Positions 2,290-16,352 of a stretch of 43,655 nt of DNA are shown one piece after another (position 1 is the first letter of the stretch; each line of letters opens with the position of its first letter). Source of the DNA: an uncultured Alphaproteobacteria bacterium (GTDB taxonomy: Bacteria > Pseudomonadota > Alphaproteobacteria > HIMB59 > GCA-002718135). Position numbers and translations under genes: made by a program. The notes beneath the pieces were generated by a model. It had not been told where the DNA came from. It did not search any database and saw only the letters and a list, made by a program, of their open reading frames with translations. The DNA is taken from NCBI GenBank assembly GCA_902574475.1, contig CACGNZ010000011.1:1-43655 (forward strand), given 5' to 3'.

Positions 2290-3369
2290 TTATTTAAATG
2301 CTTGTCCTGAACTATCAAATAATTGGCATCTTCCAGCAGGGAATCCAACTTTTACAGTATCACCAACTTTTATTTCTGAATGCCCTTCAGTTTCTGCAAC
2401 TAATGGCTCACCATCTTTTTCAAGGTATAGATAAGTAACGTCACCAAGTTTTTCGACAACAAATACTTTACTCTCCCACGAACCATCTGAATCACCATTT
2501 ACCACTAAGTGTTCCGGTCTAATACCTAATGTTACTGCATCACCTTCAGAAGAAGATGCTGACATTTTAGAGACTGATATTTTTGACATTCCCATAATAT
2601 CAACTTCCGTAGCATCAGAACTTTTGCTTAAGATCTTACTTGAAATAAAGTTCATTTTTGGTGATCCAATAAATCCACCTACAAACATATTATTTGGTCT
2701 ATCATAAAGTTCCAATGGAGATCCTTTTTGTGAAACGATACCTGTATCAAGAACAACAATATCATCAGCTAAAGTCATAGCTTCTGTTTGATCGTGTGTA
2801 ACATAGATCATTGTTGCTTCTAGTTCATTATGAAGTTTAGCTAATTCAACTCTCATTTGAACCCTTAATGCAGCATCAAGGTTTGAAAGCGGTTCATCAA
2901 ATAAGAAAACTTTTGGCTTTCTCGTAATTGCTCTTCCAATAGCAACACGTTGTCTTTGACCACCGGAAAGTTGTTTTGGTTTTCTATGAAGGTAATCTTC
3001 TATTTGAAGAATTCTTGCTGCTTCATTCACTCTTTCATTAATTTCATCTTTTGATCTTTTTTCTAATTTCAAACCAAAAGCCATATTATCAAATACAGTC
3101 ATGTGAGGGTATAATGCATAAGATTGAAACACCATTGCAATATTTCTTTGCTTTGGCGGTAAATCATTAACTACCTGACCATCAATTGAAATTGTACCTG
3201 AATTGATATCTTCAAGTCCTGCTATCATTCTTAACATAGTTGATTTACCACAACCACTTGGTCCAACTAGAACTGTGAATGATTGACTTTTGATGTCTAG
3301 AGATACGTCTTTAATTACGTGGACGTCTCCAAAATATTTATTAACAGTATTTATATTTATATCTGCCAC
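2290..3369 (-). CDS. aglK: Sugar ABC transporter ATP-binding protein (AglK/UgpC/MsmK type)
   Basis: This is the cytoplasmic ATPase of a CUT1 sugar importer. Walker A is GPSGCGKST (residues 36-44), the Q-loop MVFQSYALYPHMTV, the signature LSGGQRQRVAIGRA, Walker B VFLFDEPLSNLDA, and the H-loop THDQTEAMTLAD. A C-terminal OB/TOBE regulatory domain (about 240-359) contains the conserved GIRPEH. I place the start at the GTG at 3369, because AAAGGAGG lies five bases upstream and MADIN-type N-termini are normal for the family. An in-frame ATG at 3420 would add 17 atypical residues. It is the last gene of the aglEFG operon, 102 bases after aglG, and has its own strong ribosome site. UgpC/MsmK ATPases are known to serve several importers, which matters because the CUT1 system at 33.7-36.8 kb has none. 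Confidence 0.92.
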   Translation of the reverse strand: MADININTVNKYFGDVHVIKDVSLDIKSQSFTVLVGPSGCGKSTMLRMIAGLEDINSGTISIDGQVVNDLPPKQRNIAMVFQSYALYPHMTVFDNMAFGLKLEKRSKDEINERVNEAARILQIEDYLHRKPKQLSGGQRQRVAIGRAITRKPKVFLFDEPLSNLDAALRVQMRVELAKLHNELEATMIYVTHDQTEAMTLADDIVVLDTGIVSQKGSPLELYDRPNNMFVGGFIGSPKMNFISSKILSKSSDATEVDIMGMSKISVSKMSASSSEGDAVTLGIRPEHLVVNGDSDGSWESKVFVVEKLGDVTYLYLEKDGEPLVAETEGHSEIKVGDTVKVGFPAGRCQLFDSSGQAFK

Positions 3370-3471
3370 TTCATCCTCCTTTGAGCGATCTTTCAAGTGT
3401 ATGAATACATCATCATACAAATATGGTTATATTTAACGATAATTTAAAGGAAAAATCAATAGTTTTTAATA

Positions 3472-4611
3472 CTAGCCCTTAACTGATCCTGCTACTAATC
3501 CTCTTATAAAATATCTTTGTAGGGCGAAAAAGATAAATAAAGGGACTGTCATTGAAACAAAAGCTCCTGTCGTTAATATCTCCCAGTTTTCCCCTCTTGA
3601 TCCAAGTAATTCTTTTAGTTTAGCAGTTAAAATTATTTCACTTGGAACCTGGTCTAAAAATACTAAACCAACTAATAAATCATTCCAGCACCATAAAAAT
3701 TGCAATATAAATATTGAAGCAAATGCAGGTATTGATAAAGGAATAATTATACGTAAAAAAATATCATAGTGGGAAGCGCCATCAACTTTAGCAGCCTCCA
3801 TCATTTCATTAGGCAAGCTTTTTAAGAAATTTCTCAATAAGAAAGTAGTCGAAGCTAATCCAAAACCAGTATGTGCCATCCATACTCCAGGATATGATTT
3901 TGCTGCTACACCAAATAATGCACCAAAATCATTATAGATTGTTAGGATTGGTATTAAAGACATTTGAAGAGGAACAACAAGAGACGCAATTATTATCGCT
4001 AAAAGAGTATCTCTTCCATAAAATCTCATCCAAGTTAAGGAATAGGCAAAAAAGGAACATATTATTAATGGTATCAATGTAGAAGGTAGGGCAACAGCCA
4101 TTGTATTGATAAATGCTCTTCCAATTCCTTCTTTAAATAAAACTTCTCTATAATTTTCAAAAGTAAATGAAGGTGGGCTTAAAGATGTAGTAAATAATCT
4201 TTTGCCTTTTTTCTTTTGAAATTCACTTTTTGATCTCCATTCATAATTTCCATTTTCATCTAGTATGACTTCACTTTCATCTTTAAAAATAGCAATATCA
4301 CCAATCTTGAATTCATTTATTTTTTTAGAATTTATACCAAAGCTTTCAATTTTTTTCCCCGAATTTTCTTCAAACAATGTTCCTTTAATTTTAAAATAAC
4401 CATCTTCCTCAATTTGAGATTCCATTCCCGACATTCTATAAATTTCATTTATTTCAGTTGTAGTTAAAGCTGTCCACCAGCCACTTATTGCTAACAAATC
4501 TTTATCTCTTAAAGAGCTTATAAAAAGTCCAAAAGTCGGAATGATCCATACAATCACAAAAAACAATAACAATAATTGTGATAAGATTGATGATAATGAA
4601 ATTTTCTTCAT
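3472..4611 (-). CDS. aglG: Alpha-glucoside-type ABC transporter permease AglG
   Basis: This inner-membrane permease has 379 residues, about 100 more than ordinary MalG-type proteins. The excess is a hydrophilic, presumably periplasmic, insert between the first membrane helix and the core (about residues 35-150). It contains SLRDKDLLAISGWWTAL and KIKGTLFEEN, a layout characteristic of AglG from rhizobial alpha-glucoside transporters. The core has the EAA coupling loop, EMMEAAKVDGASHYDIFLRI, which docks on the ATPase, and ends in FIRGLVAGSVKG as in MalG-like proteins. Its ATG overlaps the aglF stop (TAATG), so translation is probably coupled. Substrate is inferred from family resemblance: trehalose, maltose, sucrose or similar alpha-glucosides. 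Confidence 0.88.
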   Translation of the reverse strand: MKKISLSSILSQLLLLFFVIVWIIPTFGLFISSLRDKDLLAISGWWTALTTTEINEIYRMSGMESQIEEDGYFKIKGTLFEENSGKKIESFGINSKKINEFKIGDIAIFKDESEVILDENGNYEWRSKSEFQKKKGKRLFTTSLSPPSFTFENYREVLFKEGIGRAFINTMAVALPSTLIPLIICSFFAYSLTWMRFYGRDTLLAIIIASLVVPLQMSLIPILTIYNDFGALFGVAAKSYPGVWMAHTGFGLASTTFLLRNFLKSLPNEMMEAAKVDGASHYDIFLRIIIPLSIPAFASIFILQFLWCWNDLLVGLVFLDQVPSEIILTAKLKELLGSRGENWEILTTGAFVSMTVPLFIFFALQRYFIRGLVAGSVKG

Positions 4612-5594
4612 TAAATTTTTTGCTCCTGTCTATGTTTGTATAAATTCCAAGCTAGGATTGGTATTACCCCAATCATAATGACAATAGCTAATACACTTCC
4701 TCTTCCAGAATCTCCACCACCCCTAAACATCCAATCGTACATTAAATTAGCTAATACTCCAGTTTGCCATTCACCATTGGTCATAGCAAAAATAATATCA
4801 AAAATTCTTAGAACAATAATTGTAATTAGAGTCCAAATGACAAGAATTGTTTGTTCTAAATAGGGTATGATAATTGAAAAAAATATTTTTAATTCGCTCG
4901 CTCCATCAATTCTCGCAGCTTCCAACATTTCTTTAGGTATACTTCTTAAAGCTGCACTAAATATTACAAGAGCTAGTCCAGTCTGTATCCAAATCATTAT
5001 TGCCATTAAAAAAAAATTATTCCATATTGGAATTGTTAACCATGCCTGAGGTTCATAACCAAGTGAAACTATTATTGCATTAAGTAAGCCAATTTGTGTA
5101 TTATCTGGTCCTCTATACTCGTAAATAAACTTCCAAATTACGCCTGCTCCAACAAATGAGATTGCCATAGGCATGAATATTATTGATTTTGCAATTGAAC
5201 CCCACCAAATTCTATCTGCTAGGTTTGCTATAACTAAACCAAAAAAAGTACTTAATGTTGGGACAACAAGCAACCAAACAAGATTATTTAAAATACTTCT
5301 TCTAAATTCAGGATCACCAATAGCCCATTTATAATTATATAGACCAACAAATTCTCTTCCAAATTTATCGTAAAAGCTAAGCCGAACAGTTTCAAAAACT
5401 GGATATAAAATAAATATAAATAAAACAATAAAAGCAGGGGCAATGAAAATAATTACTCTTATTGAATTTTCAAAATTATATCTTCTTACACTTTTTCCAC
5501 CATAAGCATCTAGGGCTAAATTAGAAATATGAAAGTAACTTACAAAAAATAATATTCCTAAAAAAACAATGAATAATAAATTTAGGATGGTCAT
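4611..5594 (-). CDS. aglF: Alpha-glucoside-type ABC transporter permease AglF
   Basis: This MalF-type inner-membrane permease (327 residues) begins with an extra N-terminal helix, LLFIVFLGILFFVSYFHI, then a second at IIFIAPAFIVLFIFILYPV, and five further hydrophobic segments. The EAA loop is EMLEAARIDGASELKIFFSI near residue 228. AglF proteins characteristically carry this additional N-terminal helix. It pairs with AglG to form the transmembrane channel. It lies 66 bases after the binding-protein gene, and that gap holds a strong terminator-like hairpin, so permease levels should be well below those of the binding protein. Confidence 0.88.
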   Translation of the reverse strand: MTILNLLFIVFLGILFFVSYFHISNLALDAYGGKSVRRYNFENSIRVIIFIAPAFIVLFIFILYPVFETVRLSFYDKFGREFVGLYNYKWAIGDPEFRRSILNNLVWLLVVPTLSTFFGLVIANLADRIWWGSIAKSIIFMPMAISFVGAGVIWKFIYEYRGPDNTQIGLLNAIIVSLGYEPQAWLTIPIWNNFFLMAIMIWIQTGLALVIFSAALRSIPKEMLEAARIDGASELKIFFSIIIPYLEQTILVIWTLITIIVLRIFDIIFAMTNGEWQTGVLANLMYDWMFRGGGDSGRGSVLAIVIMIGVIPILAWNLYKHRQEQKI

Positions 5595-5610
5595 TAATGA
5601 TTAAATATAT

Positions 5611-5647
5611 AAAAAAAACAGGCGAACAAGTTAATTGTTCGCCTGTT
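5611..5647 (-). terminator. Intrinsic terminator/attenuator between aglE and aglF
   Basis: A perfect 13-bp stem (5617-5629 with 5635-5647) with a 5-base loop GTTAA. Read on the minus strand it is followed by a run of eight T. It sits inside the operon, so it should act as a partial terminator or as a stabiliser of the aglE mRNA 3' end, raising binding protein over permease. Confidence 0.85.
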
Positions 5648-5660
5648 ATTAAGGAGGTAG

Positions 5661-6968
5661 TTATTTAATTGCGTCCCAACTGTCTTGGATTGCATCAGCA
5701 ACATCTTTAGCAGATTTTCCATTGGTATAGTCAACCATACCAGTCCAGAAAGTTCCTGCACCAATTGCACCAGGCATTAGATCTGATCCATCAAATCTAA
5801 ATGTAGTTGCTCCTAAAAGTATGTCATGAAGACCTTTAAATGTCTCACTTGAGTATTTATTTTTATCAACGCCTTTATGAGGTGTTAAGAAACCACCTTT
5901 TTCCATAAATCTTTCATTTGGTTCAGGGTGTAATAAAAATTTCATGAACTCAATAGTTGCAGCATTATCGTTTGTTGCAGCAACAAGAGTACCAGCACCT
6001 AGAACTGGCTTTCCAAGATCTTTTCCAGCGAAAGCAGGGAAGTAGAAGAAGTCATAATCAACTCCTGCCTCTGATCCTTCAGGAAAGAATGCTGGAATAA
6101 AACTAGCTTGTCTGTGCATCATACATTCAGCTGGAGATGTAAATAATCCATTTGGAGCATCTCTAAAATCTGTTGTTGCAACAGCTTTACTTCCACCATT
6201 TACATAATCATCATTTAAAGCAAATGAACCAAAAGTATCCATAGCTTCAATTACTCGTGGATCATTAAATGGCATTTCATTTGAAACCCACATGTCATAT
6301 ACTTCTGGTGAATGAGTTCTAAGCATTATATCTTCCATCCAGTCAGTTGCAGGCCAACCAGTAGCTGCACCAGAACCGAGACCAATACACCAAGGTGTAT
6401 TGCCATCTGATGCCATTTGATCAGTTAAAGCAATTAACTCTTCCATTGTTCCTGGAATTTCATAACCATTATCTTCAAAGTTATCTGGAGAGTACCAAAC
6501 TAAACTTTTTACATTGACTCTAAAAAATACGCCCATGAATTGATCTGTACCATTTTCATCTGCATATGTTGTTAGATCTACCCAAGATTGTCCAGCAGCG
6601 TAATCATCTAAAACCATTTGTTTTATATCATCACCAAGAGGAACCAATCCTCCCATAGCTGCAGCGTTAGCTGCTAATCCAGGTTGCGGGAATATAACTG
6701 CATCTGCAGCACTTCCAGCCTTTAAGTCTATCATAACCTGTTGCTCAAAACTGTCAGAGCCACCGTATTCAACAGTTGCTCCAGTTGCTTTTTCAAAGAT
6801 TGAAACAACATCTCTAAAGTCATCATCTTGCGGTGCTAACCATGGACCAAAAACAGTAATTTTTTGCCCGCTTAAATCTGGTCCTGTATAGTGTCCACCA
6901 GCTGTAGCTGAAAAACTTAAAAGAAATGTTGAAATAGATAAAAATAAAATTTTAAAAATATTTTTCAT
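5661..6968 (-). CDS. aglE: Alpha-glucoside-type periplasmic substrate-binding protein AglE
   Basis: A 435-residue extracellular solute-binding protein. The first 24 residues form a clear Sec signal peptide (basic MKNIFK, hydrophobic core, SATAG cleavage region). The mature part begins with GQKITVFGPWLAPQDDDF, as in AglE-like family 1 binding proteins, and contains typical lobe motifs such as DAVIFPQPGLAANAA and FMKFLLHPEPNERF near the C-terminus. It captures the sugar in the periplasm and delivers it to AglFG. It is the promoter-proximal gene. GGAGG lies seven bases before the ATG, and a LacI-type operator lies about 50 bases upstream. Sugar identity is by resemblance only. Confidence 0.9.
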   Translation of the reverse strand: MKNIFKILFLSISTFLLSFSATAGGHYTGPDLSGQKITVFGPWLAPQDDDFRDVVSIFEKATGATVEYGGSDSFEQQVMIDLKAGSAADAVIFPQPGLAANAAAMGGLVPLGDDIKQMVLDDYAAGQSWVDLTTYADENGTDQFMGVFFRVNVKSLVWYSPDNFEDNGYEIPGTMEELIALTDQMASDGNTPWCIGLGSGAATGWPATDWMEDIMLRTHSPEVYDMWVSNEMPFNDPRVIEAMDTFGSFALNDDYVNGGSKAVATTDFRDAPNGLFTSPAECMMHRQASFIPAFFPEGSEAGVDYDFFYFPAFAGKDLGKPVLGAGTLVAATNDNAATIEFMKFLLHPEPNERFMEKGGFLTPHKGVDKNKYSSETFKGLHDILLGATTFRFDGSDLMPGAIGAGTFWTGMVDYTNGKSAKDVADAIQDSWDAIK

Positions 6969-7016
6969 TATTCCTCCATATTTTTAATAAGATAAAATAT
7001 ATAGTTTTATATTTTA

Positions 7017-7030
7017 CCAAAACGTTTTGG
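7017..7030. promoter_or_regulatory. LacI-family operator between aglE and its regulator
   Basis: CCAAAACGTTTTGG is a perfect 14-bp palindrome with the central CG typical of LacI/GalR-family operators. It lies 49 bases upstream of the aglE ATG and 36 bases upstream of the regulator ATG, so one bound dimer could control both directions. I saw no second copy in the window by eye. Confidence 0.82.
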
Positions 7031-7065
7031 TTGTCAATTCATTATTTCTCAGTTATTCATGTATT

Positions 7066-8079
7066 ATGAACATTAAAGAATTGGCAAAAAAACTAGGTTT
7101 ATCAATAACCACAGTTTCAAGAGCCCTTGGAGGCTATTCAGACGTTAGTGAAAAAACTAGAGAAAGAGTGAAAAAATATGCCAATAAGTATCAATATAGC
7201 CCTAATCCTTACGCCAGTACTTTGGCATCTGGAAAAGTAAAAACTGTTGGATATGTTCTTCCGATATATGGATCCAATACCAGCACTCTTAACCAAGGAA
7301 ATTTTTTTCAATTTATTTCAGGTATGTCAGAAGAATTATTATCTGAAAGTATACAGCTTCAAATTTCATTTGCTAAAAGTGAGAACGAAGAATTAATAGC
7401 TTATGAAAAACTAATCACTGAACATAAAATAGAAAATATTGTTTTACAAAACATTAAGACAAAAGATAAACGAATAGAAATTCTTAATAAATATAAAGTT
7501 AATTATGTAGCTTGGGGAAAAACTAAAAGTAAAAGAAATTATTCTTGGGTTGATTTAGATAATGATAATGCAATAAAAATTATTATTAATTATTTAATTA
7601 AAAAAAATCATACTCATATTGCTTATATTAATATTTCAGAAAAATATAACTTTGCTAATGAGCGAAAATCATCTTTTCTTAAAAATTTAAAATTAAATAA
7701 AATAAATTTTAATCCTAATTACTATGCCTCAGTAAAACTAGAAGAGCCAGAAAATAGTTTTGAAGTAATAAAGAAAATGCTTACAAAAAACAAAAAAATT
7801 TCTGCAATAATTTGTTCAACAGAATTTTCAGCACTAAGTGCAGTAAAAGCGTGTAATGATTTAAATTACAAAATAGGAAAAGACATATCTATTATTACTT
7901 TTGATGGTGCTCTAGTTAGAGATTTAAGCTCACCTCCTATTACTGCCGTATCTTTTCCAGTTAAAGAATTAGGTAAAAGAGCAATAAATATTTTATTAGA
8001 TAAAAATAAAAATCAAACAGTTAATTATTTAGCGAAATCAGAAATTATTGAAAGAGGCTCTGTTCATATTGTAAGTTAA
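7066..8079 (+). CDS. LacI-family transcriptional regulator of the agl operon
   Basis: The protein (337 residues from the ATG at 7066) opens with a LacI helix-turn-helix, MNIKELAKKLGLSITTVSRA, then the hinge segment KKYANKYQYSPNPYA. A periplasmic-binding-like effector domain follows, containing IAYINISEKYNFANERKSSF and IITFDGALVRDLSSPPITAV. An upstream TTG could extend the frame to 7027, but that would overlap the operator and add residues not typical of the family, so the ATG is preferred. It is divergent from aglE with a perfect LacI-type palindrome between, so it probably represses the transporter and itself until the sugar binds. AglR-like is the best guess. The effector is unknown. Confidence 0.9.
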   Translation: MNIKELAKKLGLSITTVSRALGGYSDVSEKTRERVKKYANKYQYSPNPYASTLASGKVKTVGYVLPIYGSNTSTLNQGNFFQFISGMSEELLSESIQLQISFAKSENEELIAYEKLITEHKIENIVLQNIKTKDKRIEILNKYKVNYVAWGKTKSKRNYSWVDLDNDNAIKIIINYLIKKNHTHIAYINISEKYNFANERKSSFLKNLKLNKINFNPNYYASVKLEEPENSFEVIKKMLTKNKKISAIICSTEFSALSAVKACNDLNYKIGKDISIITFDGALVRDLSSPPITAVSFPVKELGKRAINILLDKNKNQTVNYLAKSEIIERGSVHIVS

Positions 8080-8096
8080 TACAATTATTTCTTATT

Positions 8097-9092
8097 TTAA
8101 GAAGCAATTTCTTTACGAATATAATAACTATTATCTTTATGTTGTTTAATTATGGCTGGTATTATTTCTTTATAAGCGTCAAATAAGCTTGTGTTAGCTT
8201 TAGGTAGCTGATCTTTTATTAATTTACTTAGTTTTGGTAAATTATAAGAGGGTACAGATGGGAACATATGATGTTCAACATGATATTCCATGTGCCAATA
8301 CAAAAAGCTAAATATAGGATTAAATCGTACTGATCGAGTTGTGTATCTATGATCTTTAATGTCTTCAGGAAGCCCTAGATGCTGAGTCATATTAAATATA
8401 TTGATTATGTTACCCCAGTATCTTGGGAAGAATATTAATAGTGCTGGAAGAGGGTTCATTAAATAGAATGATAAAGCAAAAGATGCAATCCATAGTAAAA
8501 CATGTATTCTAGAAATGAGTCGGCATTTTGCTATTTCATTTTGAGGTATACAATCTCTCATAACAGGAGTGGTAAATCCTAATGCATGTTTTATGATTTC
8601 GTACTTAAATGAATGTTTAAAATATATTAATTCGTAAAATGGAACAAAACTAAATAAAAAACTTTTTAAGCTTGGGTATTGATGAAATAAAGCAGCTTCG
8701 AAATCATGAGGATCACTCACTGAAGACGTATTACTGTGATGTCTGAAATGACTCCAAGTCCATCTTGTGGGTTCAAAGTCGGTCATGAAAGAACCAATTT
8801 GGTAAAAAATTTCATTTAAATATTTCGACTTAAAAGCCGTTCTATGACCGCACTCATGCCAAATTGGATTACTAGAATAAAAAAGAACACCATAAAGCCA
8901 TAGCCACAAGACTGTCCACCAAGTTCCCCATGTTGTTACTGACATGTAACCAAAGAAAAATAAAAGAATGAAATATAGAGTTACGTGTTGTAACCCTTTT
9001 AAATCACTTTTTTTTGATAATTGTTTTAGATCTTTTTTACTTATTTCAGCTCTAAACCACTTGTCATCAACATTATCTAGCTTTTCATTCAT
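8097..9092 (-). CDS. MocD-like membrane di-iron oxygenase (fatty acid desaturase superfamily), copy 1
   Basis: The 331-residue integral membrane protein has the three histidine boxes of the desaturase/hydroxylase superfamily: HECGH (79-83), HFRHH (115-119) and HVEHH (271-275), which hold two irons. Membrane segments lie around 38-75 and 185-215. The surrounding words (WHECGHRTAF, RWTWSHFRHH, NMTQHLGLPEDIKDHR, NPIFSFLYWHMEYHVEHH, DAYKEIIPAI) fit the MocD branch, named from rhizopine (3-O-methyl-scyllo-inosamine) catabolism, better than lipid desaturases. MocD works with a Rieske ferredoxin (MocE) and a reductase (MocF); neither is in this window. It is the last gene of an eight-gene minus-strand run and a paralogue of the gene at 15339. 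A lipid desaturase role remains possible. Confidence 0.82.
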   Translation of the reverse strand: MNEKLDNVDDKWFRAEISKKDLKQLSKKSDLKGLQHVTLYFILLFFFGYMSVTTWGTWWTVLWLWLYGVLFYSSNPIWHECGHRTAFKSKYLNEIFYQIGSFMTDFEPTRWTWSHFRHHSNTSSVSDPHDFEAALFHQYPSLKSFLFSFVPFYELIYFKHSFKYEIIKHALGFTTPVMRDCIPQNEIAKCRLISRIHVLLWIASFALSFYLMNPLPALLIFFPRYWGNIINIFNMTQHLGLPEDIKDHRYTTRSVRFNPIFSFLYWHMEYHVEHHMFPSVPSYNLPKLSKLIKDQLPKANTSLFDAYKEIIPAIIKQHKDNSYYIRKEIAS

Positions 9093-9153
9093 GTTTTCAA
9101 AATAAATGTTGTTTTAAAAAAATTAAAGTTAAAAATTAACAATTTTGACACAC

Positions 9154-10221
9154 TTAAATGTCTAACCACTTTCCAGAATCACTACTTTCGTAACATTTAT
9201 CTAGGATTTGCTGAATTTCAGCTCCTCTTTCAAAATCAGGCTCATGACTTGTATTGCTTTCAATAGACTCAATAAATCTTTCAAAATTAGTAGGCGAAGG
9301 AGGGCATTTAATTTCCTCCCATTCTAATTTATCTTCCTTACTTGAAAATTCTCTTTCAGTATCATTGGTAAACATAAACTTATTACCTTCATTAATAGGA
9401 TCATCAAATTCAATTTTAACTGCACCTTTATCTCCAAATATTCTTAGCTCTAATCTATTTGAATAACCAGTTGCAAATCTAGTTGCATTGATAGTACCGA
9501 TTGCACCATTATCAAATTCTACCATAGATAAAAAAGTATCATTTGCATCTAAAATATAATCTTTAATTTTTTCTCCCTTTGAATGAAAAGTTTTTAGAAA
9601 AGAATTCAGTCTTTTGATCTTTCCAATCGGCCGAGAAGCAAAATCAAATATATGAACACCAATATCACCTAATGTTCCTTTGCTGCCATGATTTGTCGAT
9701 AATCTCCAAAGCCATTTATCTTGTTCTTTCCAATTGCCCCAGTAGTTTGATGTTAGCCAAGATTGATTGTAATTTGCATCCATATGCATAATATTACCTA
9801 TTTTACCTTCTTTAACCATCTTGCAAAGTTCTTGATACCCAGATGAATTACGATAACTAAAGTTAACCATGTTAATAAGGTTTTTACCTTTAAGTGCATC
9901 ACACATTAATTGCGCATCAGCAAAATTTTCAGCTAGCGGTTTCTCACAAAAAATATGTTTATTTTTTTCTATTGCTTTAATTGATATTTCTTTATGAAAA
10001 GCATCAGGTGTTGTATTTGAAATTGCATCTACATCTGACTTTTCTAAAAGTTCATCGACACTATTATATCTATGATCAATATTAAATTTATCACAAAACT
10101 CATTTAATCTATCATTGTTTACATCACATGCTGCAACAACATCTGAATTTTTATTATCTGTAAAAGCACTTGCATGCCATTCAGCTATTCCACCTGTACC
10201 AACAATGCCAACTTTAATCAT
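9154..10221 (-). CDS. Gfo/Idh/MocA-family NAD(P)-dependent oxidoreductase (ThuB/MocA-like)
   Basis: This 355-residue protein starts with a Rossmann motif, VGIVGTGGIAEWHASAF. It carries the family hallmark EKPLAENFADA near residue 93, whose Lys contributes to catalysis. The C-terminal half is the alpha/beta substrate domain, with LGDIGVHIFDFASRP (the conserved Asp/His pair near residues 187-190). Members oxidise sugars, cyclitols or 3-keto intermediates in the cytoplasm. Its ATG overlaps the stop of the ThuA-domain gene (ATGA), which recalls thuA-thuB, where ThuB oxidises disaccharides to 3-keto sugars. It equally recalls mocA of rhizopine catabolism. The neighbouring binding protein and MocD-like genes suggest that it oxidises the imported sugar or cyclitol. 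Confidence 0.88.
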   Translation of the reverse strand: MIKVGIVGTGGIAEWHASAFTDNKNSDVVAACDVNNDRLNEFCDKFNIDHRYNSVDELLEKSDVDAISNTTPDAFHKEISIKAIEKNKHIFCEKPLAENFADAQLMCDALKGKNLINMVNFSYRNSSGYQELCKMVKEGKIGNIMHMDANYNQSWLTSNYWGNWKEQDKWLWRLSTNHGSKGTLGDIGVHIFDFASRPIGKIKRLNSFLKTFHSKGEKIKDYILDANDTFLSMVEFDNGAIGTINATRFATGYSNRLELRIFGDKGAVKIEFDDPINEGNKFMFTNDTEREFSSKEDKLEWEEIKCPPSPTNFERFIESIESNTSHEPDFERGAEIQQILDKCYESSDSGKWLDI

Positions 10222-11003
10222 TTTTTATAATTATGATCTACTTTATATCCTTTAACTTCAATAGGTTCGATTGGAGTTTTTCTTTCCATATAATCAATAC
10301 CCTTAGCAATTCTATCAACCCATAGACCAGATGTTTTTTCAGGACAAACCCAATGAACAGAATTTTTTATTACCCTTTGAACATCTTTATTATAATAAAC
10401 GGGGTATGACTCGTGACCTGGTCTAAAATAAAATATTTTACCATTACCTCTTTTATAACAAAGGCCTGATCTAAAAACTTCACCACCTTCAAACCAACTT
10501 ACAAATACTGTTTCATCTGGTGCTGGAACTTGAAAAGGTTCTCCATACATCTCAGTCATATCAATTTCAAAGTATTCTCCCAAACCTTCTGCGATTGGAT
10601 GTCCTGGGTTGCAAACCCAAACTCTTTCCCTTTCTCCTCTTTCTGCCCATCTAATATTTGCAGTTGTACCCATCATTCTTCTAAAAATTTTAGAGTGATG
10701 CCCTGAATGCAAGACCAAAAGGCCCATACCTTCTAAAACTCTTTGTTGAACTCGGTCTACAATTCTATCCTCAACTAATTTATGAGCTTTGTGACCCCAC
10801 CATATTAAAACATCAGTTTTTTCTAGTAATTCTTCAGTTAACCCATGATCTTTTTCTTCCAGAGTTGCTGTTGAGATATTAAGACTTTTATCATCTGATA
10901 AAAATTCTTTGATACAACCATGAATACCATTTGGATATATTGATTTTACATGTTCATCTTCTTGTTCATGAACAAATTCATTCCATATAACTAAATTAAC
11001 CAT
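10218..11003 (-). CDS. ThuA-domain protein (trehalose-utilisation type)
   Basis: The 261-residue protein belongs to the ThuA family, which has a class I glutamine-amidotransferase-like fold. Typical pieces are VTIWNE-like NLVIWNEFVHEQEDE at the start, YPNGIHG, TDVLIWWGHKAHKLV, GLLVLHSGHHSKIFRRMMGT, NPGHPIAEGL and IFYFRPGHESYPVY. There is no signal peptide, so it is cytoplasmic. In rhizobia ThuA acts with ThuB in 3-keto-disaccharide metabolism; its exact chemistry is unsettled. It is translationally coupled on both sides: its ATG overlaps the permease stop and its stop overlaps the dehydrogenase start. That tight packing makes a shared pathway with the transporter and the Gfo/Idh/MocA enzyme likely. 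Confidence 0.88.
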   Translation of the reverse strand: MVNLVIWNEFVHEQEDEHVKSIYPNGIHGCIKEFLSDDKSLNISTATLEEKDHGLTEELLEKTDVLIWWGHKAHKLVEDRIVDRVQQRVLEGMGLLVLHSGHHSKIFRRMMGTTANIRWAERGERERVWVCNPGHPIAEGLGEYFEIDMTEMYGEPFQVPAPDETVFVSWFEGGEVFRSGLCYKRGNGKIFYFRPGHESYPVYYNKDVQRVIKNSVHWVCPEKTSGLWVDRIAKGIDYMERKTPIEPIEVKGYKVDHNYKK

Positions 11004-11977
11004 TATCTAACTCTTTCACCATGTAGACGATGCCCTAATAATGCTAATAATATTATTAATCCATTAAAAAACTGTCTCCATTCACCACTCCAACCTATTG
11101 CTATTATACCAATTTCCATATACGCAATTATTCCTACACCAAAAACTGCCCCAATGATTGTACCCAATCCCCCCCAGTAAGGAGTGCCGCCAACAAACAC
11201 TGCCGCAAGAGCTAATAACAAATATCCAAAACCTTGAGTTGGAAAAAAAGTATACGTAATCATAGTAGTAAATATTCCACCTATTGCTGCACCAACACCA
11301 ACAAACATAAAAGCTTTTATTTTAACAGCATTTACATTAATTCCCATTTGTTCAGCACTTACTGTATTATCTCCAACGTGTTGAATATGGATTCCAAAAA
11401 CATGTTTATTAAAAAAATAGTAACAAAAAATTACAAATAATGCTGCCCAAAATATTTGCATTGGGAAGCCATAAAAATTGCCTACTAGTAAAGGATAAAT
11501 CCAATGATTTTCAACTTCCATAATTGTAATTGATCGACTATTCGTTAATAAAAGTATTACACCTCTTAGTAAAAATAACATTCCAAGAGAGGCCACAAGA
11601 GATGAAAGTCTAAAAACAACTATTAAAGTGCCTACTAATGCTCCTATAGCAGCTCCAGTTAAAATTCCTAAAACAAAACAAATTCCAGGATCTACACCAT
11701 TTTTTACAAGTAATGCAAAAACGTAAGCTGCCACTGCATAAGTAGAGGCAAAAGAAAGATCTATTTCACCTGATGCAACTAAAAAAACTAAAGGAATAGT
11801 TAAAAAAATTAAAGTAGGCATCATTACAAATACAGATTGATGAAGATTAGGCCTTATCCAAGCTTCCGGTGCACCGATAAAAAAAATCACCATTAATAGT
11901 ACAAAGTATCCTATACTTCCTAAAGCTCTTCCGTTTCTGTGAAAGTAGTTACTTAAATATGAATTATTATTGCTCAT
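11003..11977 (-). CDS. CUT2 (ribose-type) ABC transporter permease
   Basis: The 324-residue inner-membrane protein has about nine or ten hydrophobic segments and RbsC/FrcC-type landmarks: LVFLVASGEIDLSFA, where the conserved GxIDLS lies, GTLIVVFRLSSLVASLGMLFLLRGV, VGDNTVSAEQMGINV, and the C-terminal GGTPYWGGLGTIIGAVFGV. CUT2 permeases form homodimers, so one permease gene suffices. They import monosaccharides or cyclitols (ribose, fructose, myo-inositol, rhizopine). Start and stop overlap the flanking genes (TAATG on both sides), indicating coupled translation with the ATPase and the ThuA protein. The substrate cannot be told from the permease. Confidence 0.9.
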   Translation of the reverse strand: MSNNNSYLSNYFHRNGRALGSIGYFVLLMVIFFIGAPEAWIRPNLHQSVFVMMPTLIFLTIPLVFLVASGEIDLSFASTYAVAAYVFALLVKNGVDPGICFVLGILTGAAIGALVGTLIVVFRLSSLVASLGMLFLLRGVILLLTNSRSITIMEVENHWIYPLLVGNFYGFPMQIFWAALFVIFCYYFFNKHVFGIHIQHVGDNTVSAEQMGINVNAVKIKAFMFVGVGAAIGGIFTTMITYTFFPTQGFGYLLLALAAVFVGGTPYWGGLGTIIGAVFGVGIIAYMEIGIIAIGWSGEWRQFFNGLIILLALLGHRLHGERVR

Positions 11978-12723
11978 TAGTGTGTCTTTATTGTATCTCT
12001 CATTATTTTCATTAGTTCTTCTGGTGTAGATATATCATTTTTATTTAGTTGATGCACAACTTCTCCTCTATCTAAAATTACAAATCTATCTGAAATATCG
12101 TAAACATGATAAATATTGTGACCAATAAATAGAACTGATCTATTTGATTTTTTAACATTTAAAACAAAATCAAAAACCTTCTGTGTTTCGTTCAAAGATA
12201 GATTATTTGTTGGCTCATCAAGTACAATTAATTCTGCATTATTATAAATAGCTCTTGCTATTGCTACACCTTGTCTTTCACCTCCAGACAAATTACCAAC
12301 AGGAGATTCAGCATTTATTAATTTAGATGTAAAGCCTATTTCTCTGATTAACCTATTTGCTTCATAAATTTGTTCTTTTTCTTTTATAAATCCAAATGGA
12401 TATCTTAATTCTTTACCCATAAAAATATTTTTAACTATTGATTGTTGTGGTGTTAAAGCTCTATCTTGGAAAACTGTTTCGATGCCTGACTCTCGTGCTT
12501 TTAATGCATTCCAATTAATAATTTTATCTCCTCTTATAAAAATTTCTCCTTCATCGGGGCTATACACACCAACTAATGTTTTAATTAATGTTGATTTACC
12601 TGCGCCATTATCACCGATTAGACCGACTACTTCTCCTTTAGTTACTTTTAAAGATGCTCTGTTTAAAGCAGTAATTCCACCAAATCTTTTCGTAACTTTC
12701 TTTAACTCAATGATATTTTCCAT
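11977..12723 (-). CDS. CUT2 ABC transporter ATP-binding protein with a single nucleotide-binding domain
   Basis: The 248-residue ATPase has one set of motifs: Walker A GDNGAGKST near residues 37-45, signature LSGGERQGVAIARA, Walker B LIVLDEPTNNLS and a histidine switch LFIGHNIYHVYD. RbsA and MglA have two fused ATPase halves of about 500 residues. FrcA-type CUT2 ATPases have one, as here, so it is likely a natural single-domain subunit, not a truncation. Both ends are clean: it starts 55 bases after the binding-protein gene and its stop overlaps the permease ATG. It energises import together with the permease and the binding protein encoded at 12779. Confidence 0.9.
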   Translation of the reverse strand: MENIIELKKVTKRFGGITALNRASLKVTKGEVVGLIGDNGAGKSTLIKTLVGVYSPDEGEIFIRGDKIINWNALKARESGIETVFQDRALTPQQSIVKNIFMGKELRYPFGFIKEKEQIYEANRLIREIGFTSKLINAESPVGNLSGGERQGVAIARAIYNNAELIVLDEPTNNLSLNETQKVFDFVLNVKKSNRSVLFIGHNIYHVYDISDRFVILDRGEVVHQLNKNDISTPEELMKIMRDTIKTH

Positions 12724-12735
12724 AAATTTCTGAAC

Positions 12736-12759
12736 GCTAACCCATTTAAATGGGTTAGC
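12736..12759. terminator. Perfect 24-bp inverted repeat between binding-protein and ATPase genes
   Basis: A 12+12 base perfect palindrome without a spacer: GCTAACCCATTT followed at once by its reverse complement. In RNA it would fold into a hairpin of about 10 bp with a tight loop. Lacking a long T-run, it is more likely an mRNA 3'-end stabiliser or attenuator than a full terminator. Its position after the binding-protein gene matches the hairpins at 5617 and 35000. A protein-binding operator is the alternative. Confidence 0.7.
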
Positions 12760-12778
12760 AATATAATTATCTATCTAT

Positions 12779-13774
12779 CTATCTTAAACCTGCATCAGCA
12801 AGAGCTTTTACAGCTTGATAATTATTTGTATCAACAAATCCTGCACCAGTATCTTGGTTTATAGCACCAGTACCAAGTACAGCTGTTTGACAAAGTGATA
12901 AAACTGGAAGATACCCTTGAAGGAAAGGTTGTTGATCTGAAGTTAGATGAACATATCCTTTTTCAAAAGCTGACATTATTTGTGGACTCGTATCAAAACC
13001 AATTTGAAGTAATTCACCAGGCCCATAACCTGCAGCTTTAGCAATACCTTCAGCAACATTCATAATATCACTTCCTGAATGAACAATAACTTTTGTTTCA
13101 GGATTTGCATTAAGCGCTGCTGAAAAAATTGGAATAGTCATATTAGGATCTGAGGCATATTTAGGATCACCATCAAGAACAGTAACTGTCATACCATGCT
13201 CTTCAAATATGATTCTTGCACCATCTTCTCTTTGAGCTCTAGCATAGTCACCAAGGGGAACCATTACTATAGCGTGATCTCCTGCTTCAAAACCAAATTG
13301 TCTAATTGCCTCTCTTGCAAGCGCTTTACCTTGAGTTGCTAAATTTGCACCAACGTATCCACCACCGTATTTTGCTCTTACACCTGATGGATCAACGTTT
13401 TGATATGTCATCAATATACCATTATCAGCAGCTTGTCTCGCTAAAGGCATAAGTGCTTCATCTCCTGGATGTCCCATCATTGCAATAGCGTCAACACCAA
13501 GACCAACGGACTCTCTAAGTTGACGAACCATTTTTTCAAAATCCCATTCTGAATAAATAATTTCTGCATCTGCACCAGTGTCTCTAATTGCATTCATTGC
13601 CCCTGCTGCAACTATGCCAGCAAAGCCCCCTGCTTCAGGACCACCAGCATAAAAATGCATTTTTACATCTGAGCACCATTTATCACCTAGGTCTTGTCCA
13701 GTTGGAGCAGCATAAGCTTGCATAGAAACTGGAAAAATAAATAAAGTAATAAGAAGTAATTTAATAATTTTCAT
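12779..13774 (-). CDS. CUT2 periplasmic sugar/cyclitol-binding protein (RbsB/MocB-like)
   Basis: A 331-residue type I periplasmic binding protein. A signal peptide (MKIIKLLLITLFIF through AYAA) is followed by FYAGGPEAGGFAGIVAAGAM, VDAIAMMGHPGDEALMPLARQA, GYVGANLATQGKALAREAI and GFDTSPQIMSAFEKGYVHLT, typical of the ribose/galactose/inositol-binding group. I start at the ATG at 13774, because GGGAGG lies five bases upstream. A GTG four codons earlier would place the ribosome site inside the gene. It is the third gene of the eight-gene run, 81 bases after the aldehyde dehydrogenase. A perfect palindrome follows its stop. MocB of rhizopine catabolism is in this family, but the ligand here is unknown. 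Confidence 0.9.
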   Translation of the reverse strand: MKIIKLLLITLFIFPVSMQAYAAPTGQDLGDKWCSDVKMHFYAGGPEAGGFAGIVAAGAMNAIRDTGADAEIIYSEWDFEKMVRQLRESVGLGVDAIAMMGHPGDEALMPLARQAADNGILMTYQNVDPSGVRAKYGGGYVGANLATQGKALAREAIRQFGFEAGDHAIVMVPLGDYARAQREDGARIIFEEHGMTVTVLDGDPKYASDPNMTIPIFSAALNANPETKVIVHSGSDIMNVAEGIAKAAGYGPGELLQIGFDTSPQIMSAFEKGYVHLTSDQQPFLQGYLPVLSLCQTAVLGTGAINQDTGAGFVDTNNYQAVKALADAGLR

Positions 13775-13855
13775 ATTTCCTCCCACGGATTTATTTTTAA
13801 ATCTAATATTAAATAATAATAATAAAGTTTAACTAAAATTACTTGTAAATGTCAA

Positions 13856-15292
13856 CTAGTAGAGTCTTTTACTTATTCTCTTTGTTTGTCCATGACTATA
13901 AACACCATCTACGCCGCCATCTCTTCCATAACCTGATCTTTTGTAACCACCACCTGGAAGATTATTTCCATCAACAAACCAATCGTTTTGCCAAATTATT
14001 CCCGCCTGTATTCTATCAGCAGTCCATTTTGCTTTTTGATCATCTGAGGTAAATACTCCAGAAGCAAGACCATATTTTGTTGAATTTGCTATACTAATTG
14101 CCTCTTCTTCATCTTCAAAATCAAATATTGATGTTACTGGACCAAATATTTCTTCTTGAGCAATTGTTGCATCAACTTTTACATTATCAAAAATAGTTGG
14201 TTGATAAAAATTTCCATCATTTCTCTCAGCTTTATCTCCGCCTATTGTTAAGGTGGCTCCAGATTGTACGCCAGATTTTACATAATTTGAGACTCTTTGC
14301 ATTTGATCAGTTGATATTAAAGGTGTTACTTCAGTTCCTTCCTCATCACCTGCGCCTATTTTTAATTTTTGCGTTTTTGCAACTAGCTTTGTCATATATT
14401 CATCTTTAATTTTAGGATGAACAATAACTCTAGACATTGCTACACATATTTGTCCTGCATTTGGTTTAAAAATTCCCTTAACTGTACTTTCAACAGCTTT
14501 ATCGATGTCAGCATCAGGATAAATTATTGCTGCAGATTTCCCGCCTAATTCAAAATGTGTTGGGACAATTCTATCTGCTGTCTCTTTTAATATCTCTGAA
14601 GCAACTTCAGGTGATCCAGTAAAGACAATATAATCACTTCCAGGATGTTGAACTAATTTTCGACCAGTTGTTTCTCCATAACCATGAACAATATTTATAA
14701 TTCCTTTTGGAACACCAACATCTTCAAATATTTGACCATAAAAATTAGAAGATATAGGACAAAGTTCGGGAGGTTTTATAACTATGGTATTTCCCACAAT
14801 CCAATTCTGCGCAACCATTCCTGAAAATATAGAAACAGGATAATTCCATGGAACTATTTGAAGCGCAACTCCAAACGGTTCTAAAACAACATAATTTAAA
14901 GTATCATGACCAGATGGAATTAATTTATTTTCAATTTTATCTGTTAATCCTGCATAAAAATCAAACGTGTCCGCAGCACCTTTAAATTCATCTACACATT
15001 GTTTTATAGTTTTTCCATTTTCTTGACTTAGAAGTTTTCCACCTTCATCTTTTCGCTCTCGTAATTTTTGAGCAATAGCTCTCATCATATTTGATTTATC
15101 TTTTGAATCCATATCGACTAAAATTCTTTTATCGAATGCATTTTTCGCTGCTTCAAAAGCTAAATCAATTTCTTGATCTAATGCTTCATCAATATTTCCT
15201 ACAATTTTTTGATTTGCAGGATTTAGAACAGGAATATTTTTTTTTGATAATGAATCAATAAATTTACCGTCTATAAAATTTCTCAGTTCCAT
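13856..15292 (-). CDS. NAD(P)-dependent aldehyde dehydrogenase
   Basis: A 478-residue member of the aldehyde dehydrogenase superfamily with all key residues: Asn150 in PWNYP, Lys173 in VIKPPE, Glu248 in FELGGKS and the catalytic Cys283 in AGQICVAMSR. It also has the late EEIFGPV and the C-terminal GGYKRSGYGRDGG motif. Length is normal. It oxidises an aldehyde to an acid in the cytoplasm. It sits 46 bases after the second MocD-like gene and before the CUT2 binding protein. It may therefore take an aldehyde produced by the oxygenase step (for O-demethylation, formaldehyde or a sugar aldehyde). The betaine-aldehyde/gamma-aminobutyraldehyde branch looks closest, but specificity is not assigned. 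Confidence 0.92.
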   Translation of the reverse strand: MELRNFIDGKFIDSLSKKNIPVLNPANQKIVGNIDEALDQEIDLAFEAAKNAFDKRILVDMDSKDKSNMMRAIAQKLRERKDEGGKLLSQENGKTIKQCVDEFKGAADTFDFYAGLTDKIENKLIPSGHDTLNYVVLEPFGVALQIVPWNYPVSIFSGMVAQNWIVGNTIVIKPPELCPISSNFYGQIFEDVGVPKGIINIVHGYGETTGRKLVQHPGSDYIVFTGSPEVASEILKETADRIVPTHFELGGKSAAIIYPDADIDKAVESTVKGIFKPNAGQICVAMSRVIVHPKIKDEYMTKLVAKTQKLKIGAGDEEGTEVTPLISTDQMQRVSNYVKSGVQSGATLTIGGDKAERNDGNFYQPTIFDNVKVDATIAQEEIFGPVTSIFDFEDEEEAISIANSTKYGLASGVFTSDDQKAKWTADRIQAGIIWQNDWFVDGNNLPGGGYKRSGYGRDGGVDGVYSHGQTKRISKRLY

Positions 15293-15338
15293 ATTATTAA
15301 GTAATTAAAGCTAAAGTGTAAGATGTGTCAAGAACAGT

Positions 15339-16352
15339 TTAGTTATTTGGAACTTGAACTGGAATAAAATAATCAGGATTTTTAGACTTCTTTATGATCG
15401 CAGGTATAATTTCTTTATAAGCTTGATATAAAGTTTGCGGTTCTGGCATTTGGTCTTTTATAACTTCATATAATTTTGGAAGATTGTATGAAGGTATCAT
15501 AGGAAACATATGGTGTTCAATGTGGTACTCCATTTTCCAATAAATAAAGCTAAAGATTGGATTAAGTCTCACTGATCTTGTTGATAGTCGATGATCCTTG
15601 GCGTTTTCTTTTAGACCTATATGTTGTGTCATACCCCAGATTACATTAAAATTGCTAAATAACTTTGGAATTAAAAATAACAATATTGGAAGAAGTGTGA
15701 AAAAGTAAATTGAAAAAGCTATAATTGTAATCCATAACAAAACAAAAATTCTAGAGCTATTAATACAATCTTTTATTTTGTCCTCTGGAATGCAATCTTT
15801 CATTACATTAGTTTTAATTCCTAAGGCATGTTTTATAATTTCTACATAAAGGGATTTATGAATTGTAAAGAAACCAGTTCCAGGAACAAAATTTAAAATA
15901 AAACTTAAAAATGTATGTTTAGCAAAAATACTTGAATCTACTTCATAGTCATGAGGATCAATTGAAGCAGTATAGCTATGATGAAGAGAATGGCTCCACT
16001 TCCATCTAACAGGTTCAAAATTATTCATAAAACTAGCAATGTTATAAAAGAACTTATTTAACTTTCTATTCTTGAAGGCAGTTCCATGACCACACTCATG
16101 CCATATAGCATCAGCTCCGCCCCACATCATGCAATAAGCAAGGTACACAGGTACAAACCATAAAGTTTGCCATGTATAGATTGATAATACGCATAAAGCA
16201 GTTAATGATATTGTATAAATAATTATATGTTTCCAACCTTCAAAATCTGATCTTTTAGAGAGTTTTTTAAGTGTTTTTCTATCTATTTTAGCTCTAAACC
16301 ATTCCTCGGAAATATTATTTATCCCTGTTTGTACTTTTTTAGTTTCTGACAT
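15339..16352 (-). CDS. MocD-like membrane di-iron oxygenase (fatty acid desaturase superfamily), copy 2
   Basis: This 337-residue paralogue of the gene at 8097 has boxes HECGH, HSLHH and HIEHH. Shared words run throughout: EEWFRAKI against DKWFRAEI, HALGIKTNVMKDCIPE against HALGFTTPVMRDCIPQ, NPIFSFIYWKMEYHIEHHMFP, and YKEIIPAIIKK. WHECGHGTAF is the form usual in the MocD group. It is the first gene of the eight-gene minus-strand run, so the two oxygenases bracket the transporter and dehydrogenases. The pair may act on two positions or two related substrates. It is divergent from ugd, and the 117-base AT-rich gap between them holds both promoters; no clear operator is seen there. Confidence 0.82.
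   Translation of the reverse strand: MSETKKVQTGINNISEEWFRAKIDRKTLKKLSKRSDFEGWKHIIIYTISLTALCVLSIYTWQTLWFVPVYLAYCMMWGGADAIWHECGHGTAFKNRKLNKFFYNIASFMNNFEPVRWKWSHSLHHSYTASIDPHDYEVDSSIFAKHTFLSFILNFVPGTGFFTIHKSLYVEIIKHALGIKTNVMKDCIPEDKIKDCINSSRIFVLLWITIIAFSIYFFTLLPILLFLIPKLFSNFNVIWGMTQHIGLKENAKDHRLSTRSVRLNPIFSFIYWKMEYHIEHHMFPMIPSYNLPKLYEVIKDQMPEPQTLYQAYKEIIPAIIKKSKNPDYFIPVQVPNN

What the first reader, a model, noticed from the sequence alone, without database searches (positions are those of the whole stretch)
8097..16352. Eight-gene cluster with two MocD-like oxygenases bracketing a CUT2 importer: candidate new sugar/cyclitol catabolic system
Seen: gene order MocD-like, ALDH, binding protein, ATPase, permease, ThuA, Gfo/Idh/MocA dehydrogenase, MocD-like, all minus strand with coupled starts in the middle. 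Known: MocA, MocB and MocD act in rhizopine breakdown, where MocD with a Rieske ferredoxin removes an O-methyl group; ThuA/ThuB act in 3-keto-disaccharide metabolism. Inference: the cluster imports and oxidises an O-methylated or otherwise modified sugar or cyclitol, with the ALDH taking the released aldehyde. The combination of MocD pair plus ThuA is one I do not know as a described pathway.
Basis: partly seen in the sequence, partly recalled or inferred. Interest (0 to 1): 0.82.

Follow-up and report, generated by a model that had tools for sequence, protein, structure and literature searches.

The report
Sugar-demethylation gene cluster, oxygenases plus importers
A small-genomed ocean bacterium carries an eight-gene set that probably imports a methyl-decorated sugar and oxidises the methyl off; it is one of several such sets in its genome, and related sets often sit beside an unusual relative of a folate enzyme that may catch the released carbon.

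Summary
The eight genes are real, at the stated coordinates, and conserved: 31 of 48 contigs examined carry all eight in order, 19 without insert. The lineage is inferred to be AEGEAN-169, order HIMB59. Both oxygenases fall in the MocD clade and miss the acyl-lipid-desaturase cut-offs. The unit is larger than claimed: this 1.30-Mb assembly holds seven MocD-like genes in five loci, but one MocE-type Rieske ferredoxin, in an operon on another contig. In three relatives the cluster is interleaved with the neighbouring CUT1 importer. A PanB paralog (PanBL) lacking PanB's metal and keto-acid residues lies within 5 kb of MocD in 69 of 104 cases, about 3 expected; of nine other stretches read, five have PhyH within 5 kb, a family with a proven ribose O-demethylase. 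Best reading: oxygenative O-demethylation of imported sugars or cyclitols, the carbon going to folate. Substrate and chemistry are unproven. Against: 19 of 22 HIMB59-family genomes with MocD have no MocE, and most PanBL outside the order have no such neighbour.

The parts
15339..16352 (-). oxygenase A, MocD-like membrane di-iron oxygenase (FA_desaturase superfamily)
   Evidence: Pfam FA_desaturase 128.2 bits; HECGH, HxxHH, QH and HxEHH motifs, His invariant among 14 MocD-like proteins; MocD clade
13856..15292 (-). aldehyde dehydrogenase, closest to betaine-aldehyde dehydrogenase models but under cut-off
   Evidence: Aldedh 492 bits; BADH 432.8 of 668.6
12779..13786 (-). periplasmic sugar-binding protein of a CUT2-type importer (GTG start as listed; an ATG four codons in is possible)
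   Evidence: Peripla_BP_4; best NCBIfam rhizopine SBP 64.6 of 420 bits
11977..12723 (-). single-domain ABC ATPase (248 aa) of the importer
   Evidence: ABC_tran 119.1 bits
11003..11977 (-). CUT2-type permease
   Evidence: BPD_transp_2 124.1 bits
10218..11003 (-). ThuA-family protein
   Evidence: ThuA 114.5 bits
9154..10221 (-). Gfo/Idh/MocA dehydrogenase
   Evidence: best NCBIfam levoglucosan dehydrogenase 167.5 of 650 bits, IolG 135.9 of 355
8097..9092 (-). oxygenase B, MocD-like, 51% identical to A
7027..8079 (+). LacI-family regulator between the two importer operons (listed TTG start; HTH begins at residue 15)
   Evidence: found in the same place in some relatives, such as L044, L063, L075, L077
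5661..6968 (-). CUT1 substrate-binding protein, same locus
   Evidence: beside the cluster in many relatives
4611..5594 (-). CUT1 permease 1
   Evidence: beside, or interleaved with, the cluster in relatives
3472..4611 (-). CUT1 permease 2
   Evidence: beside, or interleaved with, the cluster in relatives
2290..3420 (-). CUT1 ATPase (MalK type)
   Evidence: ABC_tran + TOBE_2; the CUT2 cluster lies between CUT1 permease 2 and this gene in L041, L043, L080

Best explanation
The locus (about 2290-16352) imports one or more glycosides, sugars or cyclitols through a CUT1 and a CUT2 ABC importer. MocD-type di-iron oxygenases A and B then hydroxylate an O-methyl (or similar) substituent, which falls off as formaldehyde. 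The Gfo/Idh dehydrogenase and ThuA oxidise and process the ring, and the ALDH oxidises an aldehyde product. Electrons for A and B probably come from the one MocF-like reductase and MocE-like Rieske ferredoxin found, on another contig. The released carbon enters the tetrahydrofolate pool, possibly with help from PanB-like proteins. Shown: gene content, conservation, clade membership, the single MocE/MocF operon found, the PanB-like association, no over-cut-off glutathione formaldehyde dehydrogenase and a formate-THF ligase in three genomes. Inferred: substrate, O-demethylation, electron route, PanB-like function, order of steps.
For: Both oxygenases are in a 40-row clade (100/100) with the MocD of a rhizopine-type cluster (L176: annotated rhizopine-binding protein, inositol 2-dehydrogenase, xylose isomerase, Rieske ferredoxin, ferredoxin reductase), apart from 8 other FA_desaturase rows. 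The MocE-type Rieske of the own genome lies between a Reductase_C-type ferredoxin reductase and PanBL + MocD on C30; its G022 ortholog scores 136.0 of 136.15 bits on the MocE model. The seven MocD-like genes found lie with ABC importers or, on C30, sugar-acid genes. In L042, L043 and L080/L170 PanBL lies inside the window-type cluster, and in L042 and L080 a MocE-type ferredoxin adjoins oxygenase A. PanBL within 5 kb of MocD: 69 of 104, 3.3 expected. Rhizobial MocD-MocE-MocF-PanBL operons are followed by purU in L180 and L182. PanBL also lies by PhyH genes; the bacterial PhyH FJS removes a ribose O-methyl as formaldehyde (PMC12709175, abstract and passages). Glutathione formaldehyde dehydrogenase over cut-off in 0 of 3 genomes, FTHFS in 3 of 3.
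Against: No substrate or activity is known for these genes; that MocD demethylates is recalled, resting on pathway genetics. The window has no MocE, MocF or PanBL among the genes of this locus. In the HIMB59 family, 19 of 22 genomes with MocD have no MocE-type Rieske, so MocD need not use MocE. Outside the order, 10 of 16 class-sample PanBL loci show no MocD, MocE, PhyH or FA_hydroxylase match in the stretch read (only these families were looked for; some stretches end at contig ends). Two MocDEF clusters have no PanBL nearby (L176, L179). Binding protein and dehydrogenase miss all substrate-specific cut-offs. PurU is not over cut-off in the three genomes; other formaldehyde dehydrogenases were not searched.
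Confidence: 0.47

Rival explanations
1. The MocD-like enzymes hydroxylate or desaturate the sugar or cyclitol skeleton (or another polar substrate) rather than removing a methyl group; the cluster degrades a non-methylated compound.
For: The best NCBIfam match of both is the guanitoxin arginine hydroxylase model GntB, 58.2 and 35.5 of 380 bits. Two oxygenases in one cluster fit two ring oxidations. No methyl-specific gene is in the window.
Against: The nearest clade with pathway evidence is MocD, and recurrent neighbours PanBL, purU and PhyH fit C1 release.
Confidence: 0.3
2. PanBL is a 2-keto-acid aldolase or other sugar-acid enzyme of a Dahms-like pathway, unrelated to C1; its link with oxygenases reflects shared sugar catabolism.
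For: PanB does aldol-type chemistry (recalled). PanBL lies with SMP-30 and an IlvD/EDD-type dehydratase in the C30-type locus; L227 has PanBL with SMP-30-like and dehydratase-like ORFs and no oxygenase seen (judged by eye). Deleting E. coli panB and ltaE did not change growth on formaldehyde (PMC7073904, passages), so ordinary PanB does not do the C1 capture.
Against: The 11 PanBL aligned lack the D84, K112 and E114 equivalents and the stretch holding D45/S46, the Mg2+ and keto-acid site (residue roles recalled). purU follows PanBL in L180 and L182.
Confidence: 0.3
3. The oxygenases are lipid desaturases or hydroxylases that happen to sit by sugar genes.
For: Pfam calls them FA_desaturase.
Against: DesA/DesB models 24-52 of 500 bits; MocD clade; conserved order with importers. 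No biochemically characterised lipid desaturase was in the tree, so the tree alone does not exclude this.
Confidence: 0.05

Closest known systems
Rhizopine catabolism (mocABCDEFR of Rhizobium and Sinorhizobium)
   Same: MocD-type oxygenase, Gfo/Idh/MocA dehydrogenase, CUT2 importer with rhizopine-type binding protein; MocE/MocF-like pair in the genome
   Different: LacI next door and no MocR seen; no MocC-like gene in the cluster; MocEF on another contig; ThuA and ALDH added; two oxygenases; equivalog cut-offs not reached
ThuAB trehalose utilisation / 3-keto-glycoside pathways
   Same: ThuA directly followed by a Gfo/Idh dehydrogenase, near a CUT1 importer, as in Aureimonas L119 and L127
   Different: I recall no oxygenase there; CUT2 importer here; 3-dehydrogenase equivalog cut-offs not reached
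P450 demethylation of 6-O-methyl-galactose from porphyran (PMC10033563, passages)
   Same: marine bacteria removing a sugar methyl ether with an oxygenase, ferredoxin and reductase, giving formaldehyde
   Different: cytochrome P450 in Flavobacteriia, not a MocD-type enzyme; no PanB-like protein in the passages read
PhyH-family 2'-O-methyl nucleoside demethylase FJS/PHYHD1 (PMC12709175, abstract and passages)
   Same: oxygenative removal of a sugar O-methyl; PhyH genes neighbour PanBL and MocD in this order
   Different: 2-oxoglutarate enzyme; no importer cluster or PanBL in the passages read
Ketopantoate hydroxymethyltransferase PanB (for the PanB-like partner)
   Same: Pfam family, conserved H136 and E181 equivalents
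   Different: below the TIGR00222 cut-off; metal and keto-acid residues lost

Membership tests
MocD oxygenase | FA_desaturase superfamily with conserved histidine boxes | tested here: met
MocD oxygenase | groups with MocD of a rhizopine-type cluster, apart from other desaturases | tested here: met
   the comparison set held no biochemically characterised desaturase, and three of the 8 outside rows (L203, L205, L206) also have a MocE neighbour, two of them a PanBL
MocD oxygenase | mocE and mocF in the same operon | tested here: not met
   no MocE or MocF among the genes of 2290-16352; one MocE/MocF pair found, on contig C30
MocD oxygenase | O-demethylating activity | not testable with these tools
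   needs enzyme assay
Rhizopine catabolism system | binding protein of the rhizopine equivalog (NF052284, cut-off 420) | tested here: not met
   64.6 bits; note that the annotated rhizopine-binding protein of L176 scores only 39.6
Rhizopine catabolism system | mocC and mocR in the locus | tested here: not met
   the regulator is LacI-type and the eight genes include no MocC-like protein
ThuAB pathway | ThuA followed by a Gfo/Idh dehydrogenase | tested here: met
ThuAB pathway | glycoside 3-dehydrogenase equivalog score | tested here: not met
   62.9 of 750 and 52.9 of 650 bits
CUT2 sugar importer | Peripla_BP_4 + BPD_transp_2 + ABC_tran | tested here: met
CUT2 sugar importer | tandem-domain ATPase of about 500 aa, as in most CUT2 systems (recalled) | tested here: not met
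   single domain of 248 aa
Acyl-lipid desaturase | DesA or DesB equivalog cut-off (500 bits) | tested here: not met
   24-52 bits
PanB ketopantoate hydroxymethyltransferase (partner protein) | TIGR00222 cut-off 207.55 | tested here: not met
   102-131 bits for three PanBL; the genome's true PanB 230.5
PanB ketopantoate hydroxymethyltransferase (partner protein) | D45, D84, K112, E114 (E. coli numbering; roles recalled) | tested here: not met
   absent or replaced in 11 of 11 PanBL aligned

The most novel reading that the evidence does not exclude
PanB-like proteins are an unrecognised family of tetrahydrofolate-dependent formaldehyde (hydroxymethyl) acceptors. They serve oxygenative sugar demethylases of unrelated folds (MocD-type di-iron, PhyH 2-oxoglutarate, perhaps FA_hydroxylase). 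AEGEAN-169 bacteria, with up to seven MocD paralogs fed largely by one Rieske ferredoxin, use this to live on methylated sugars in the open ocean and to draw C1 units from them.
Probability: 0.2. Interest if true: 0.85.

Novelty: new variant of a known kind. Interest (0 to 1): 0.6.

Why it matters
Seven paralogs of an oxygenase that is rare in the class sample, in a streamlined 1.3-Mb genome, imply a nutrient class that this ocean lineage depends on. AEGEAN-169 is known for broad sugar transport (PMC10308909, passages read); 'desaturase' and 'ThuA' do not occur in that paper's main text. [quoted passage not shown] The C1-auxotrophic E. coli strain of that paper makes the idea directly testable.

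Tried and rejected
Lipid desaturase reading: DesA/DesB/CrtR/CrtW scores are far below cut-off and the tree groups both enzymes with MocD. A search for DesB members in 120 genomes found none over cut-off and ten outgroup proteins reached no NCBIfam cut-off, so the tree has no characterised lipid desaturase. Two long rows (L207, L208) of the first, quick tree were left out of the careful one.

Solved structures: no PDB sequence matches the MocD profile at E up to 1. AlphaFold models of a PanBL and of oxygenase A, from shallow alignments, had mean pLDDT 53.8 and 55.7; no fold search was run on them.

One Rieske ferredoxin for every MocD: fits the own genome, fails for the HIMB59 family.

PurU as the general C1 outlet: beside PanBL in two rhizobial plasmids, not over cut-off in the three genomes searched.

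Promoter/terminator scan: no more sites than in shuffles.

Literature: in searches on MocD/MocE/rhizopine, PanB with demethylation, ThuA 3-keto, AEGEAN-169 and methylated sugars no title or abstract start listed joins MocD, PanB-like proteins and sugar demethylation. Lists were capped and the library holds open-licence papers only.
Full report
What is there. The host assembly is 1,303,962 bases in 59 contigs, 84% complete. Close relatives of the cluster lie in single-cell genomes (AG-numbers), among them AG-337-I02, whose contig L097 carries the same eight genes. AG-337-I02 is used as the name of an AEGEAN-169 genus of order HIMB59 (PMC8692485, passages); that the window belongs there is inferred from this. 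The second family of the order (f2) includes a one-contig genome of 1,410,127 bases, G037, which I take to be HIMB59 from its size (recalled, not tested).

Conservation. Across 48 contigs all eight genes occur in order in 31 (19 without, 12 with an insert); 10 are cut near a contig or locus end, and 7 are subsets otherwise, of which L064 also reaches its contig end. True subsets include relatives with oxygenase A but no B at the locus (L041, L043, L071, L080) and two marine 'Deltaproteobacteria' contigs (L101, L106) with SBP-NBD-TMD-ThuA; in L106 a PhyH and a PanB-like gene follow. Inserts read: a CUT1 importer with PhyH and PanB-like genes (L063, L066, L067; L065 has the same spacing), a PhyH-like ORF (L076, by eye), and a beta-lactamase-family ORF between oxygenase A and ALDH in L062, with similar ORFs in L064 and L066. 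In L041, L043 and L080 the CUT2 cluster lies between CUT1 permease 2 and the CUT1 ATPase, so the neighbouring CUT1 importer, and probably the LacI gene, belong to the locus.

Oxygenases. A and B are 51% identical; the His residues of the four boxes are invariant in 14 MocD-like proteins from this order and from Rhizobium, Marivivens and Burkholderia. NCBIfam desaturase and carotenoid models stay far under cut-off. In a careful tree of 48 rows, 40 MocD-type rows separate from 8 others with 100/100 support. All rows of this order in the tree but one divergent copy (L053) form one clade of 25 (100/97), which holds A, B and four of the other five own paralogs (the fifth, on C2, was represented by its ortholog L200). 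So the expansion probably happened inside the order. The outer 8 rows are not plain lipid desaturases: L203, L205 and L206 have MocE neighbours, L203 and L206 also PanBL. In a class sample of 385 genomes, matches of 298.9 bits or more occur in five listed order members and in 9 of the other 380, at most two each there (at most five candidates per genome were scored). The own genome has seven.

Electron supply. Pfam Rieske gives two hits in the own genome: one of 39.9 bits in a 175-aa frame, likely the bc1 subunit (not tested further), and one at C30:803-1066. The latter lies in a run of ferredoxin reductase (cut by the contig start), Rieske, PanB-like, MocD, FA_hydroxylase, SMP-30 and dehydratase. 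In G022 the longer locus also has a second MocD and a divergent CUT2 importer (L054). The G022 Rieske scores 136.0 against the MocE cut-off of 136.15. Six of the seven MocD genes found lie on other contigs. The assembly is incomplete, so further copies of any of these may be missing. Against a strict rule: in family f2, 22 of 24 genomes have MocD, but a small MocE-type Rieske occurs only in G046, G055 and G056, each beside an extra divergent MocD (coordinates).

The PanB-like protein (PanBL). It is a PF02548 protein below the panB equivalog cut-off. Against the genome's own true PanB, the 11 PanBL aligned lack the segment with the VGDS motif and the equivalents of D84, K112 and E114, and keep H136 and E181 (E. 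coli numbering, residue roles recalled). Of 104 PanBL loci in 61 genomes (own included), 69 lie within 5 kb of a MocD hit; random placement with assumed genome sizes gives 3.3. These are related genomes, so the count is not of independent events. In f2, 21 genomes have both, G041 has MocD only, none has PanBL only, G045 and G050 have neither (Fisher p 0.011). Outside the order, 6 of 16 PanBL genomes have a MocD-like match of 200 bits or more against 11 of 364 others (p 2e-5; at 290 bits 3 of 16 against 6 of 364, p 0.004); two of the 16 (G082, G347) score no higher than the own true PanB, so their class is unsure. Direct neighbours there: MocD or MocE in 4 of 16 (G281, G088, G347, G176), PhyH in 2 (G179, G250), none of the families looked for in 10. 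In the order, 35 of the 104 are not near MocD; 11 of these, in nine stretches, were read. PhyH lies within 5 kb in L167, L220, L221, L225 and L226 (Pfam-checked in L220, L225, L226; 4.4 kb away in L226), FA_hydroxylase in L224; no oxygenase seen in L227 and L228, and L223 is cut by its contig ends. L222, near a MocD, has PhyH and MocD together. Rhizobial operons read MocD-MocE-MocF-PanBL (L174, L175, L180; by similarity also L177 and L182), with purU next in L180 and L182. A rhizopine-type cluster (L176) and a Burkholderia one (L179) have MocDEF without PanBL, so PanBL is not required for every MocD.

C1 chemistry. A glutathione-dependent formaldehyde dehydrogenase over cut-off is absent from the own genome, G220 and G037 (84, 96 and 99% complete); other formaldehyde dehydrogenases were not searched. 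Formate-THF ligase is present in all three, PurU over cut-off in none. The bacterial PhyH protein FJS turns 2'-O-methylcytidine into cytidine and formaldehyde, and PHYHD1 demethylates similar nucleosides (PMC12709175, abstract and passages), which makes the PhyH-PanBL pairing meaningful. [quoted passage not shown] in the same work deleting E. coli panB and ltaE made no difference, so ordinary PanB is not the missing enzyme (PMC7073904, passages). PanB has a proposed folate-cleaving side reaction (PMC4814558, passages). None of this shows what PanBL does.

Mechanism offered. Import; hydroxylation of an O-methyl group by A and/or B with electrons from MocF/MocE; loss of formaldehyde; oxidation at a ring carbon by the dehydrogenase; ThuA processing; ALDH on an aldehyde fragment. 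MocDEF and mocBA/mocC are the described rhizopine genes (PMC10107442, passages); that MocDEF removes the methyl group is recalled, and 'demethyl' does not occur in that paper. Which oxygenase does what, and the substrate, are open.

Verdict. A real, conserved, probably catabolic locus of a known kind in a new arrangement. The wider pattern (seven MocD paralogs, one Rieske supply found, PanBL beside oxygenases of different folds) is the more interesting part.

Noticed in passing
8097-16352 and relatives L061-L080: Cassette mosaicism: importer alleles (SBP/NBD/TMD about 95% vs 72/81/65% identical) and ThuA/dehydrogenase alleles (93/90, 93/58, 85/82, 65/50%) switch independently between relatives.
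   Followed up: partly
L008 (C7) 9804-11878: A tandem MocD pair sits among CUT1 importer genes with a GH127 beta-L-arabinofuranosidase and a PanB-like gene.
   Followed up: partly
L010 (C2) 3524-14190: MocD with CUT2 importers, MocA-type dehydrogenase, PhyH and two sulfatases, suggesting a sulfated and perhaps methylated substrate; G115 (L190) also has MocD genes near a sulfatase hit.
   Followed up: partly
L167 (C16) 7814-11954: Two tandem PanB-like genes flanked by three PhyH-like ORFs, with BNR-repeat-like ORFs nearby, no MocD (families judged by eye and from the similar locus L225).
   Followed up: partly
L050 11485-12627: In G037 a 380-aa Rieske oxygenase gene lies divergently beside the MocD/PanB-like pair; Rieske hits lie near MocD in G038, G044, G052, G057 and G059 too.
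   Followed up: no
L072 (G031:C24:3845-4849): Oxygenase B of G031 has one in-frame TAA, perhaps a decaying gene.
   Followed up: no
L234: Cluster with CUT2 importer, a MocE-like ferredoxin and a PanB-like gene but no MocD match in the 16 kb read.
   Followed up: no
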